A DNA stretch of 59,321 bases from Candidatus Poribacteria bacterium. Lineage in GTDB: Bacteria > Poribacteria > WGA-4E > WGA-3G. Positions within the stretch are counted from its first letter, which is position 1. Each line of letters starts with the position of its first letter. The stretch covers positions 1 through 59,321 of the forward strand of contig VYCT01000135.1 in assembly GCA_009843785.1 (NCBI GenBank), in the 5' to 3' direction. The position numbers and the translations under genes are program-made. Of this stretch, positions 29,346-37,224 are shown piece by piece. Below the pieces are notes generated by a model, which ran no database searches, had not been told where the DNA came from, and worked only from the letters and a program-made list of their open reading frames with translations.

Positions 29346-29438
29346 CCGTAGGGGTTGGGAATGTAATACAAGGAATGGATTCAGTCTATTCGCAGACTGA
29401 ATCCCCCAACCCGTAGGGACGAGGCGACCTCGCCCCTA
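29346..29438. repeat. Nested palindromes between tlyA and dxs
   Basis: GGGGTTGGG...CCCCAACCC enclosing ATTCAGTCTattcgcAGACTGAAT, followed by GTAGGGACGAGGCGACCTCGCCCCTAT. Confidence 0.75.
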
Positions 29439-31289
29439 TACTATCATTTTCTCTGCAGCGCGAACAACAGCGTCGGCATCGCACTCGTAAAGTGCGTGAA
29501 GGTGCTGGACAGCACCATGCTCAATAAATTCGTCGGGAATACCGAGATTGGTAACTTGTACGTTTGCCATACCCGCTGCGGCGAGTGCCTCCAAAACCGC
29601 ACTGCCGAAACCGCCCATTATCACACCGTCTTCAATCGTAATTACTTTGCCGATACGTTCCGCAAGCGGCAGAATCGTTGCAGTATCTAACGGTTTTACA
29701 AATCTCGCGTTGACAACCGCCGTCGAAATTCCGATATTAGTTAATGTTTCTGCGGCTTCAAGTGCCGGATAAACCCGGTTACCAATTGCAATGACAAGCA
29801 CATCTTCACCCGCTCTGAGGATCTCACTTTCACCGATAGGCAATGCCTGGGGTTCCGCTGCGATCTTTACGCCGACTCCAGCCCCTCTCGGATAGCGGAA
29901 CGCAATGGGGCCATCTTCATAGGCGAGCGCAGTTTTTACCATAGATTGTAATTCGTTCTCATCTTTCGGTGCCATGATGACCATGTTCGGGATAGAACGT
30001 AGATATGCGAAATCAAAAACACCGTGATGCGTCGGACCATCTGCCCCGACAAGCCCGCTTCTATCCAACGCAAAGATGACCGGAAGGTTTTGGATGCAGA
30101 CATCGTGTAACACTTGGTCATAACTCCGTTGGAGGAAAGTAGAATAGATAGCCACGACAGGACGCATGCCTTGTGCTGCGAGTCCACCTGCGAACGTAAC
30201 AGCGCACTGCTCTGCCAATCCGATGTCAAAACACCGGCTCGGATACGCGTTCGCAAACTTATCAAGTCCTGTTCCACCCGGCATCGCTGCCGTCACGCCG
30301 ACGACCCGCGCATCGCGCTTCGCTAATTCAACCAGTGTTCGGCTGAAGACCTCTGTGTAGGTTGGGAGCGGCGGTTTCGGTTTGATCGTTTTTCCGGTTT
30401 TCAGGTTAAAAGGACCGCTGACGCTGTAGAACCCGACCGGATCCTCTTCTGCTGGTGCATAGCCGCGTCCCTTTTCGGTTACAACGTGAAGCAAGATAGG
30501 GCCGGACAAACTGCGGATGCCTGTCAACACTGGGATGAGTGCCTCTAAATCGTTGCCATCAAGGGGACCAAAATAACGGAACCCGAACTCCTCAAATAGC
30601 GTCCCTGGTTTCAATGAAGCCTCAATTTTACGCGCGATCTGCTGTGCATCTGCTGGCATTAAGTTCAGCAACTCTTTGACACGGGAGCGGAGGAAGTTAT
30701 ATCGCGGTGAACTCGTGACTTTATGAAAGTGCTTTGAGAACGCCCCGACAGTCGCGGAGATGGACATATTGTTATCATTGAGGATAACGAGCATATCGTT
30801 CTTGAAGTCACCGGCGGTGTTCAACGCTTCAAATGCCATCCCGCCCGTCAAACCGCCATCCCCGATGATAGCGACGACTTTGTAAGTCTCATTAATCAGG
30901 TCGCGGGCAGTCGCGATACCTAACGCAGCAGCGATAGACGTACTCGAATGCCCGGCACCAAAAACGTCATATTCACTCTCGGCTCTGCTGAGAAAACCGC
31001 TGATGCCGTCACTCTGCCTGAGCGTTGGAAACGCATCTCTTCTGCCAGTCAGCAGTTTGTGCGGATACGCCTGATGTCCGATGTCCCAGATGACTTTATC
31101 GCGTGGGGTGTCAAATACTTTATGCAAGGCTATTGCCAATTCAACCGTCCCGAAGTTCGGCGCAAAATGACCCGGATGCTCGGATAAAACGCTGAGTAGA
31201 TAGGCGCGCATCTCCTCCGCCAGGACTTCAAGGTCGCTAATCTCCAATTTTTTTAGATCCGCTGGACTATTAATTTTTTCTAAGAACAT
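29436..31289 (-). CDS. dxs: 1-deoxy-D-xylulose-5-phosphate synthase
   Basis: 617 aa; HFAPNFGTVELAIALHKVFDTPRDKVIWDIGHQAYPHKLLTGR, GDGGLTGGMAFEALN, DRSGLVGADGPTHHGVFD. Confidence 0.96.
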   Translation of the reverse strand: MFLEKINSPADLKKLEISDLEVLAEEMRAYLLSVLSEHPGHFAPNFGTVELAIALHKVFDTPRDKVIWDIGHQAYPHKLLTGRRDAFPTLRQSDGISGFLSRAESEYDVFGAGHSSTSIAAALGIATARDLINETYKVVAIIGDGGLTGGMAFEALNTAGDFKNDMLVILNDNNMSISATVGAFSKHFHKVTSSPRYNFLRSRVKELLNLMPADAQQIARKIEASLKPGTLFEEFGFRYFGPLDGNDLEALIPVLTGIRSLSGPILLHVVTEKGRGYAPAEEDPVGFYSVSGPFNLKTGKTIKPKPPLPTYTEVFSRTLVELAKRDARVVGVTAAMPGGTGLDKFANAYPSRCFDIGLAEQCAVTFAGGLAAQGMRPVVAIYSTFLQRSYDQVLHDVCIQNLPVIFALDRSGLVGADGPTHHGVFDFAYLRSIPNMVIMAPKDENELQSMVKTALAYEDGPIAFRYPRGAGVGVKIAAEPQALPIGESEILRAGEDVLVIAIGNRVYPALEAAETLTNIGISTAVVNARFVKPLDTATILPLAERIGKVITIEDGVIMGGFGSAVLEALAAAGMANVQVTNLGIPDEFIEHGAVQHLHALYECDADAVVRAAEKMIV

Positions 31290-31308
31290 GTTTTTTTATC
31301 ATCCTCTT

Positions 31309-31351
31309 CAGAGGCAAAACTCCATGCTTTAGCTTGGAGATGTAGCCTCTG
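31309..31351. other. Nested hairpin at the 3' end of the IsrB-like gene (candidate element end)
   Basis: CAGAGGC...GCCTCTG enclosing CTCCATGC-TTTA-GCTTGGAG; similar core to the upstream CTCCAGCC-TTTA-GGCTGGAG hairpin. Confidence 0.6.
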
Positions 31352-32354
31352 CTTCTTTGTATCTAAAGTTGATACGCTTCAGAACTTTGAAACTGTCTAA
31401 TTTCTGTTGTGGTCTTTGTTTTCCGGTTGTCATCTGTGTAAGGTTAATCTTACCGTTTTGGTGTCCGCTGATCCAGCAAAGCCCCCACTTCATACTTTTT
31501 ACCAATGTGCCTTTGGTAAATCCAAGGCACCTGGTGCCACCATACCTACTTCTGATACCGCCTTTTTTCGGCACTTCTCTGTGCAGGTTACGCCTTTGTA
31601 TAGGAATAGGTGATATACAAAATATATCAGTGTTATCCACAATCGGATCACCACCAAGCACATGATACGCCAAACACCAACTATCCACACAATGAGCATC
31701 AAAGGATTCAGCCGTCTTATCACTGGACTTCTTGAGTCCAAGATTTTCGCGAACATTCTTTGTTTCGTGTCCAACAAGTCTGGAAAGTTGCCACCGTTTT
31801 TCTATTTCGGAATAGAACCACTGCTTACCCACCTCAAGCGGACTAAACGACTGGTTCCATTTCTTCTGATACTGCTTCGTCCGTGCTTTAATATCTTCCA
31901 CGCATACGTGCGTGATTGGATATAGTCTCGAAAGCCAATCTAATATCCGCATCTTCCAGTCCCATCTTGCACGTGTGCCAGCAGGGATCCGGTGCCTATG
32001 AGACAGATTATGCTTCTTCTGTTTCCTGTTTGGACACTTCCGTGAACGCCTACCTCTCCGCAACTCACGCCTCTTAGCAACTTTCTTTGAAGTATGCGTA
32101 TGCGCATCCGCCTGAATATTCAGATATGTGTCAGCCTTAGATTTTACGGTGAAACCCTCTTTTTTACTGCCAGGATCCACACCAACACATATATCCTGTG
32201 TTTCTCTATCAGACGGTTCCTTGTTAAGACGGATACAATATATGCCGTTGTTCCAATAGGGCGTAGCCTCACCACGTTTGACCAACTTCCTGGCACGTGA
32301 AGCATGCATCGGCATGAGTTGTTGACCATCTTTCGTTTTGACAGGTACAAACAT
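31329..32354 (-). CDS. RRXRR/RuvC-domain RNA-guided nuclease homolog lacking HNH (IsrB-like, IscB superfamily)
   Basis: 341 aa; VPVKTKDGQQLMPMHASRARKLVKRGEAT (PLMP/RRXRR region), RuvC-I VGVDPGSKKEGFTV, Arg-rich bridge KKVAKRRELRRGRRSRKCPNRKQKKHN, RuvC-II VCVEDIKA, RuvC-III DAHCVDSWCLAY; only about 60 aa between RuvC-II and -III with no HNH motif. Confidence 0.82.
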   Translation of the reverse strand: MFVPVKTKDGQQLMPMHASRARKLVKRGEATPYWNNGIYCIRLNKEPSDRETQDICVGVDPGSKKEGFTVKSKADTYLNIQADAHTHTSKKVAKRRELRRGRRSRKCPNRKQKKHNLSHRHRIPAGTRARWDWKMRILDWLSRLYPITHVCVEDIKARTKQYQKKWNQSFSPLEVGKQWFYSEIEKRWQLSRLVGHETKNVRENLGLKKSSDKTAESFDAHCVDSWCLAYHVLGGDPIVDNTDIFCISPIPIQRRNLHREVPKKGGIRSRYGGTRCLGFTKGTLVKSMKWGLCWISGHQNGKINLTQMTTGKQRPQQKLDSFKVLKRINFRYKEAEATSPS

Positions 32355-32590
32355 AAGTTTGTATTCTCCTTTTCAGGGTATATGTTACCCCATCGAGATC
32401 GCAATACCAGCGTTTACATAGGACTTGAGGAGCATCCTAAACACCTCTGCGTGCCACCACAAGATATTACGATGTATTACTCTATTCAGTGTGTTTACAA
32501 TCGCCCAACCTATAGACTCGGCTGCCGTATTGAACAATCTCCAGCCTTTAGGCTGGAGTCACTGAACCTATGGAGTTATAAATTATAAGT
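32355..32590 (-). ncRNA. Candidate omegaRNA region 5' of the IsrB-like gene
   Basis: About 235 nt non-coding on the same strand, directly upstream, with hairpin CTCCAGCC-TTTA-GGCTGGAG (32539-32558); position matches where IscB/IsrB guide RNAs are encoded. Boundaries unknown. Confidence 0.45.
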
Positions 32591-32593
32591 TAT

Positions 32594-32815
32594 ACTAAAG
32601 TTTGGACAATTTTTCCGAAATAGACATGCCGCCCCTACGGGGCTTAGCCGCGTGGGGGGATGGCGTTTCTATAGACATACCGCCCCTACGGGGCTGCGAA
32701 TCGATGTATCCACGTTTATTTTTCTGCGAGTTGCGTTTGTGTAAGGAACTTTGAGAAAAATCAAAAGGGCTTGAAAAGCGGACATAAACCTGATTGAAGT
32801 TGTCCAAACTTTAGT
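32594..32815. mobile_element. MITE-like element with ACTAAAGTTTGGACAA terminal inverted repeats
   Basis: ACTAAAGTTTGGACAA (32594-32609) and TTGTCCAAACTTTAGT (32800-32815), perfect 16-bp TIR; contains two copies of TAGACATRCCGCCCCTACGGGGCT. Confidence 0.78.
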
Positions 32816-36180: not shown

Positions 36181-37224
36181 TTAAAACACCTCAATGTGTG
36201 CGGCTTCTCCCGCTACGACTTCTCCAATAACAGCGGCTTCCGGACAGTCGGCAGCACGGAGTTCTGCTACCGCCGCATCTGCATTCTCGGCAGAAAGTGA
36301 AAACAGCAAACCGCCAGACGTTTCCGCTTCCATCAGGATATGACGCATCGCTTCGCTATCCGTGTGGAACGTGACTTTGTCGGCAAGGAACGTCATATTC
36401 GCAAGATAGGCTTGCGTGTAAGTATCCTGTGCGACGAGGGCGGGGGCATCTTCAAAGTAAGGCACGGCTTTGCTATCTATCTTAAGGTGGGCATCATTGC
36501 CCGCCGCCATCTCCGACGCGTGTCCTAACAACCCGTATCCTGTGACATCTGTGCAAGCACTTGCACCATACTTCAGCATCACCGTCGATGCAGAAGCATT
36601 GAGCCGAGTCATCGATTCAACGAGTTGCGGTAGCACCGCATCGCTGATCTTATCGAATTTCAAGCCTGTCGTGAGGATACCGATACCGAGGTTTTTGGTT
36701 AAAATGAGGACATCCCCCGGACGCGCCCCGTAATTCTTGACGAATTTCTCTGGATGCACGATACCGGTTACGGAGAGTCCGTACATCAATTCTGGCGCAT
36801 CTACCGTATGCCCACCGACAAGCGCAGCCCCGGCTTCAATCGCTTTTTCAGTGCCACCTCTGACAATATCACCGAGTATTGAGAGCGCTAAGTCGGCTTT
36901 GGGCCAGCAGGTGATATTCAACGCCGTTTTCGGAACGCCGCCCATACTGTAGACATCGCTCAGTGAGTTCGTCGCGGCGATTGCACCGAATGTGTACGGG
37001 TCGTCAACGATGGGTGTGAAATAGTCAACCGTGTTGACGAGTGCGAGGTCGTCAGAGATGCGGTAAATTCCGGCATCGTCAGAGGTTTCCGTCCCAACAA
37101 GGAGGTTCGGGTCGGTGGATTTCGGGATGTTATCTAAAATGTGCGCGAGCTCCCCCGGAGCCAGTTTGGACGCTCACCCAGCGCACTTCACGGTCGCAGT
37201 TAAACGGATCTTCTGTTGTGTCAT
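36181..37224 (-). CDS. selD: Selenide, water dikinase containing selenocysteine (in-frame UGA at codon 17, 37174-37176)
   Basis: Track ORF starts at 36945, but the same frame extends upstream to ATG 37224 through one UGA: [103 protein letters not shown]. UGA aligns with the SelD active-site Cys/Sec (G-C/U-xxK). 348 codons. Confidence 0.94.
37147..37176 (-). promoter_or_regulatory. Candidate bSECIS 3' of the selD UGA
   Basis: UGA-GCGUCCAAACU-GGCUC-CGGGG-GAGCU: short stem, loop with G in the first two positions, about 16 nt after UGA. Confidence 0.6.

What the first reader, a model, noticed from the sequence alone, without database searches (positions are those of the whole stretch)
31309..32590. 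IsrB-like HNH-less RuvC nuclease with a candidate omegaRNA and matching end hairpins
The 341-aa protein keeps RRXRR/PLMP, bridge helix and all three RuvC motifs but has only about 60 aa between RuvC-II and RuvC-III, so no HNH. Upstream 235 nt is non-coding and structured. The hairpins CTCCAGCC-TTTA-GGCTGGAG (5') and CTCCATGC-TTTA-GCTTGGAG (3') are near copies. Established: IsrB is a nicking OMEGA effector using an omegaRNA encoded next to it.
Basis: partly seen in the sequence, partly recalled or inferred. Interest (0 to 1): 0.7.

Follow-up and report, generated by a model that had tools for sequence, protein, structure and literature searches.

The report
IsrB mobile element, predicted NTAA TAM
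This is a small mobile DNA element in a sponge-associated bacterium that carries an RNA-guided DNA-nicking protein (IsrB) and its guide RNA; such proteins are known, but its many relatives show that two amino acids track the short DNA tag next to the target, and that the elements often land between a gene's ribosome-binding site and its start codon.

Summary
Window 31300-32566 (minus strand) is a 1,267-bp element encoding a 341-aa HNH-less IsrB with PLMP, bridge helix and RuvC D60/E153/D224. It is closest to DtIsrB over its full length and separate from HNH-bearing IscBs. The upstream 212 nt is an omegaRNA with strong covariation and two pseudoknots, though Rfam's HEARO model does not match. 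The hairpins mark the element's ends. The host is Candidatus Poribacteria: 7 copies here, up to 20 per relative.

Going further: relatives with an empty site show precise insertion, without target duplication, inside the dxs ribosome-binding site. Across 120 copies the 4 bases after the right end (predicted TAM) are tracked by two protein columns. An unbiased scan of 340 columns picked exactly the positions reading TAM bases 3 and 4 in the DtIsrB structure: Arg with G3, Gln/Lys with A3 (0 errors); Arg with G4 (1 error). This copy should use NTAA, unlike the six characterised IsrBs (NTG-type). Of 95 copies with an (A/G)TG TAM, 59 start an ORF of at least 60 codons there, often with a Shine-Dalgarno in the guide. 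Activity and TAM are inferred, not assayed.

The parts
31300..32566 (-). whole IsrB element, left end TTCAGTGACTCC, right end ...GAAGAGGATG
   Evidence: Joined flanks align to element-free dxs leaders of relatives; ends conserved across copies
31329..32354 (-). isrB, 341 aa: PLMP, RuvC I-III (D60, E153, D224), bridge helix, TAM-interacting C-terminus, no HNH
   Evidence: Pfam RRXRR 101 bits; DtIsrB E 4.8e-32 full length, profile 5.2e-43
32355..32566 (-). omegaRNA scaffold (212 nt), with two pseudoknots
   Evidence: 62-copy covariation: 56 pairs 94.1% paired, 443 two-sided changes vs 121.5 in shuffles
32567..32586 (-). expected guide, the host sequence just outside the left end (about 20 nt)
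   Evidence: Position by analogy with DtIsrB (20-nt 5' guide, PMC9581776); 13 nt of it occur exactly only here in this genome
32539..32558 (-). left-end hairpin, also the first hairpin of the omegaRNA
   Evidence: Sequence; covarying helix, columns 10-31
31320..31339 (-). right-end hairpin, overlapping the isrB stop codon; inside a longer stem 31309-31315 / 31345-31351
   Evidence: Sequence; same architecture in relatives and at ends of TnpA elements
31296..31299 (-). predicted TAM and insertion target ATAA (TTAT on the other strand)
   Evidence: First four bases of the right flank; residue-TAM association
31416..31421 (-). codons of K312-Q313, at the position of DtIsrB Arg323 that reads TAM base 3
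   Evidence: Alignments; the clade is one residue shorter here, so K312 or Q313
29436..31289 (-). dxs, host gene whose Shine-Dalgarno is split by the insertion; start codon 10 nt beyond the right end
   Evidence: Pfam DXP synthase; element-free leaders in relatives

Best explanation
A non-autonomous IS200/IS605-type element carrying isrB and its omegaRNA. Shown by sequence: precise insertion, conserved hairpin ends, IsrB homology, a covarying omegaRNA, and residue-TAM association. Inferred: a Y1 transposase (TnpA) supplied by other elements moves it as single-stranded DNA to a 4-base target (ATAA in isrB sense, TTAT in TnpA sense). The transcript of the left end is an omegaRNA whose 5' guide is the host sequence just outside the element. 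IsrB with this RNA recognises the rejoined empty site (guide match followed by the TAM that was the right flank) and nicks the non-target strand, which favours recopying the element into a site it has left. The C-terminal TAM-interacting domain reads the TAM: the residue at DtIsrB position 323 reads base 3 (Arg for G, Gln/Lys for A), the one at 326 reads base 4 (Arg for G). This copy is predicted to use NTAA. Most of the family uses ATGA/ATGG/GTGA, and such copies often sit exactly between a gene's Shine-Dalgarno and its start codon, leaving the coding sequence intact and placing the Shine-Dalgarno in the guide.
For: Full-length match to DtIsrB; invariant RuvC residues; tree against IscBs; omegaRNA covariation with two pseudoknots; empty site; TAM-residue association, best 2 of 340 columns are the two known TAM contacts (contacts from PMC9581776); TnpA elements with the same kind of end and ATAA flank in the same genome; multi-copy and recently mobile.
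Against: No expression, nicking or TAM assay. No tnpA inside the element. Rfam HEARO does not match. The residue switches are few on the tree: 3 of 3 supported independent pairs agree for base 3, and 4 agree with 1 undecided for base 4, too few alone for significance. The aligned loop is one residue shorter in the window's clade. AlphaFold was too poor to place these residues.
Confidence: 0.88

Rival explanations
1. An IscB that recently lost its HNH domain and resembles IsrB only in shape.
For: Poribacteria also have HNH-bearing IscBs, so the source would be at hand.
Against: IsrBs including DtIsrB are separated from those IscBs with 99/97 support, and identity to them is only about 27-35%. 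DtIsrB matches over the full length, IscBs mostly the N-terminal part.
Confidence: 0.03
2. A domesticated, host-serving form (for example a guided regulator of dxs) rather than a mobile element's maintenance nuclease.
For: It sits directly before dxs, and its guide covers the dxs leader. Inactivated TnpB relatives that act as regulators are known (own knowledge).
Against: RuvC residues intact; the insertion is absent in close relatives; many copies at unrelated places with intact ends; near-identical copies at different sites elsewhere.
Confidence: 0.04
3. The residue-TAM association is shared ancestry only: clades differ in both by chance, and the right-flank 4-mer reflects TnpA's target, not what IsrB reads.
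For: TAM classes are clustered on the tree, and independent switches are few.
Against: The two best of 340 columns are exactly the two known TAM contacts, with 0 and 1 errors against at least 4 for others. All four combinations exist (R with Q/T: ATGA; R with R: ATGG; Q with L/F: ATAA; Q with R: ATAG), and ATAG and ATGG differ within one close clade.
Confidence: 0.1
4. The gene-start pattern is selection alone: ATGA occurs at starts and insertions inside genes are lost, so no targeting preference exists.
For: The null model is crude (short flanks, simple gene calls), and start codons naturally offer ATGA.
Against: Excess remains against non-coding and gene-start sites: ORF plus Shine-Dalgarno 32/95 vs 105/1490.
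Confidence: 0.55

Closest known systems
DtIsrB, Desulfovirgula thermocuniculi IsrB (PDB 8dmb; PMC9581776)
   Same: Domain order, length (about 350 aa), RuvC residues, no HNH, TAM-interacting C-terminus, omegaRNA encoded upstream with 5' guide, two pseudoknots
   Different: Poribacterial clade is far away (long branch); omegaRNA scaffold is shorter (212 nt against about 264 without guide); predicted TAM NTAA here against NTGA/TTGA; Gln/Lys in place of Arg323
CwIsrB, DsIsrB, CsIsrB, K2IsrB, BbIsrB (PMC9581776)
   Same: Characterised IsrBs with omegaRNAs; NTG TAMs, and NTGG for BbIsrB, like the ATGA/GTGA and ATGG classes found here
   Different: None of the six assayed IsrBs has A at TAM base 3
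OrufIscB (PMC13180657)
   Same: An RRXRR-family effector with an NTAAA TAM, so A at base 3 occurs in IscB
   Different: Has HNH and cuts both strands; 492 aa
HEARO RNA (Rfam RF02033)
   Same: Same biological kind (IscB/IsrB omegaRNA); from memory, reported at ATGA/GTGA sites, not checked here
   Different: The Rfam model does not match this RNA or 20 relatives
IS605-like elements with tnpA/tnpB in the same genome (L119)
   Same: Same kind of end hairpin in a longer stem, followed by ATAA in isrB sense
   Different: Carry tnpA and tnpB instead of isrB

Membership tests
IsrB | PLMP/RRXRR N-terminus, bridge helix, split RuvC with catalytic Asp/Glu/Asp | tested here: met
   Pfam RRXRR; D60, E153, D224 invariant
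IsrB | No HNH domain between RuvC-II and RuvC-III | tested here: met
   68 residues from E153 to H221; no Pfam HNH
IsrB | Groups with known IsrB rather than IscB | tested here: met
   only one outside IsrB, on a long branch
IsrB | omegaRNA encoded just upstream, structured, with guide at the 5' end | tested here: met
   Structure by covariation; guide position itself is inferred
IsrB | RNA-guided nicking of the non-target strand next to a 3' TAM | not testable with these tools
   Needs purified RNP; TAM predicted from flanks
IscB | HNH domain present | tested here: not met
   NCBIfam IscB 82.7 bits against cut-off 175
HEARO RNA (RF02033) | Match to the Rfam covariance model | tested here: not met
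   No match in window or 20 relatives
IS200/IS605-type element | Subterminal hairpins, precise insertion without target duplication beside a short fixed target | tested here: met
IS200/IS605-type element | Moved by a Y1 TnpA | tested here: inconclusive
   No tnpA in the element; 7 Y1 TnpA in the genome, L119 and L120 with similar ends; mobilisation in trans not shown

The most novel reading that the evidence does not exclude
In Poribacteria IsrB elements have specialised on gene starts: the guide regularly holds a Shine-Dalgarno next to an ATGA TAM that is the start codon, so the guide's TAM-proximal part partly matches many gene starts, and IsrB nicking spreads the elements, or regulates genes, from start codon to start codon.
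Probability: 0.1. Interest if true: 0.8.

Novelty: new variant of a known kind. Interest (0 to 1): 0.52.

Why it matters
The element itself is a new member of a known family. What is useful is the comparative set: about 130 distinct IsrB copies in one phylum form a natural experiment in TAM recognition, with all four combinations at two TAM bases matched to two residues. It gives a directly testable recoding rule for a very small RNA-guided nickase (Arg to Gln at the 323 position for G3 to A3; Arg at the 326 position for G4) and predicts an NTAA-TAM IsrB, unlike the NTG-type TAMs of the six characterised ones. Insertion between Shine-Dalgarno and start codon, even before dnaN, and into the dxs leader, shows how such elements can multiply with the coding sequence untouched, and raises the question of how the host still translates those genes.

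Tried and rejected
Rfam scans for HEARO at gathering score and at E<=10: no match. AlphaFold with 47 relatives: mean pLDDT 51.9, discarded, no fold search made. Viral contig scan for relatives: none. Recent HNH loss: rejected. My first boundary (right end taken as GATGA inside the flank) was corrected after the empty site showed that G is the element's last base and ATRA the flank. The first gene-start null used all flank sites including coding ones and was replaced by a non-coding/gene-start null. One-mismatch matches of the window's guide elsewhere in the genome are no more frequent than the reversed control pattern. A TnpA query was translated in the wrong frame; the ends were re-searched with blastn. 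Weinberg 2009, Altae-Tran 2021 and Kapitonov 2015 are not in the library.

Full report
Observation. The ORF at 31329-32354 (-) encodes 341 aa. Pfam finds only RRXRR (101 bits, residues 3-164); NCBIfam's IscB model matches the first half, far below its cut-off. The closest solved protein is DtIsrB, E 4.8e-32 over residues 3-336; IscBs match mainly the N-terminal part and much more weakly. A profile of 47 relatives sharpens this: DtIsrB 5.2e-43 over 3-316, best IscB 1.6e-16 over 1-121. D60, E153, H221, D224 and the LMP motif are invariant in these 47. E153 and H221 are 68 residues apart, so HNH is absent.

Host and distribution. The nearest named relatives are Candidatus Poribacteria MAGs. The window's genome holds 7 copies at 62-100% identity. 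Of 60 relatives 37 have matches, up to 20 per genome; of 85 genomes of the phylum 45 do. Identical or near-identical copies at different sites (three in G018, three in G005) imply recent movement.

Element ends. In the three G005 copies the flanks diverge immediately left of GTCAA and right of G|ATGA, only the four bases ATGA being shared. In the window the left end is TTCAGTGACTCC at 32566 and the right flank starts with ATAA at 31299. When the two flanks are joined...AACTCCATAGG|ATAAAAAAACATGTTCTTAG aligns to the dxs leaders of related genomes without the element, for example L129 aacgccataggattaaaaaacATG and L130 gactccataggattaaaaaaatATG. The insertion is therefore precise, without duplication, and cuts the native AGGA of dxs; the element's own end (GAAGAGGATG) supplies a new purine-rich stretch. 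The empty sites in relatives read ATTA, not ATAA, so the pre-insertion base in this strain's ancestor is not known directly.

omegaRNA. From the left end to the start codon, 62 non-redundant copies were aligned. RNAalifold gives 37 pairs, 28 with two-sided changes. With the closing stem and two pseudoknots added, 56 pairs are 94.1% paired, with 443 two-sided changes against 121.5 in shuffles, and a covariation score of 0.421 against 0.168; slid structures fall to 0.05-0.08. I added the closing stem and pseudoknots after looking at the alignment, so their pairing percentage leans towards them, but their two-sided changes (A-U in 36 copies and U-A in 17; G-C in 37 and A-U in 19) do not depend on that. 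Two pseudoknots are also described for IsrB omegaRNAs (PMC9581776). Rfam HEARO is not matched in the window or in 20 relatives, so this RNA is outside that model's reach. The left-end hairpin is also the first hairpin of the RNA.

IsrB, not a reduced IscB. HNH-bearing IscBs exist in the phylum (Pfam HNH in L247, L248, L249, L255) but are only about 27-35% identical. In a careful tree 19 poribacterial IsrBs plus DtIsrB are separated from six IscBs with 99/97 support. Caveat: DtIsrB is the only outside IsrB and sits on a long branch.

TAM code. In DtIsrB Arg323 reads TAM base 3 (G), Gln326 reads base 4 (A), and Q326R also accepts G4 (PMC9581776). I took the four bases right of each copy's right end as its predicted TAM. 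In 120 copies, at the Arg323 column Arg goes with G3 (102 of 102, plus one unread X) and Gln or Lys with A3 (17 of 17); at the Gln326 column Arg goes with G4 (14 of 15) and other residues with A4 (105 of 105). Scanning all 340 columns, these two are the best predictors, with 0 and 1 errors; the next have 4. All four combinations occur, and ATGG and ATAG differ within one close clade. On the tree TAM base 3 changes 5 times and residue 323 changes 5 times; on supported branches 3 of 3 independent pairs agree, and for base 4, 4 agree and 1 does not differ. These counts alone are too few for significance; the weight comes from the unbiased scan hitting the two structurally known contacts. A handful of copies with mutated or misread ends (L023, L029, L062, L072, L178, L215) were left out of the scan. 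The window's clade has KQRPQQ (KHRPQQ in L037), one residue shorter; Lys312 or Gln313 sits at the Arg323 position, and the flank is ATAA. The six assayed IsrBs have NTG-type TAMs (PMC9581776); an IscB with NTAAA is known (PMC13180657).

Gene-start insertion. Of 95 copies whose TAM is (A/G)TGN, 59 start an open frame of at least 60 codons at that codon, against 308 of 1,490 non-coding or gene-start sites in the flanks (p 4e-17); 32 also have a Shine-Dalgarno core in the guide, against 105 of 1,490 (p 6e-13). Shine-Dalgarno cores peak 8-13 nt left of the left end. Pfam supports these as true starts: DnaN residues 1-120 match profile positions 1-120 (L070), RimK_N 1-93 (L106), Epimerase from residue 5 (L096). 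The null is crude (short flanks, simple gene calls; related copies are counted separately), so part of the excess may come from selection against insertions inside genes. From memory, HEARO elements were reported at ATGA/GTGA sites; I could not check that paper.

Transposase. There is no tnpA in the element. The genome has 7 Y1 TnpA genes. An IS605-like element with tnpA and tnpB (L119) has, in opposite orientation, the same kind of end followed by ATAA; L120, L275, L283, L291, L292 and L298 likewise. The end in L120 is 90% identical to that of L015, a near relative of the window's copy. This fits mobilisation in trans with TTAT as the target in TnpA sense, but it is not shown. No matching TnpA for the ATGA class was found among the loci checked.

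Verdict. Ordinary in kind (a new IsrB element), well supported, with a clear and testable TAM code and an NTAA prediction for this copy.

Noticed in passing
window 32594-32815: A 222-bp MITE-like stretch with terminal inverted repeats ACTAAAGTTTGGACAA / TTGTCCAAACTTTAGT directly beside the IsrB element, holding two copies of ATAGACATRCCGCCCCTACGGGGCT.
   Followed up: no
window 36181-37224 (-): selD with an in-frame TGA at codon 17 (MTQQKIRLTATVKCAG-U-ASK), the usual selenocysteine position of SelD; ORF callers see only the last 254 codons.
   Followed up: partly
L070:4054-5157 and L073: In two genomes an IsrB element sits exactly between the Shine-Dalgarno and the start codon of dnaN, an essential gene.
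   Followed up: partly
L103 and L274 (G018:C2): An IsrB element inserted at the start codon of a tnpA gene of another IS200/IS605-type element.
   Followed up: no
L272, L282, L299 (G005): A multi-copy Y1 TnpA element with similar hairpins but ends in GTTAA, probably with a different target.
   Followed up: no
L033:3035-3612: An IsrB copy outside the genus lies next to a run of six tRNA genes.
   Followed up: no
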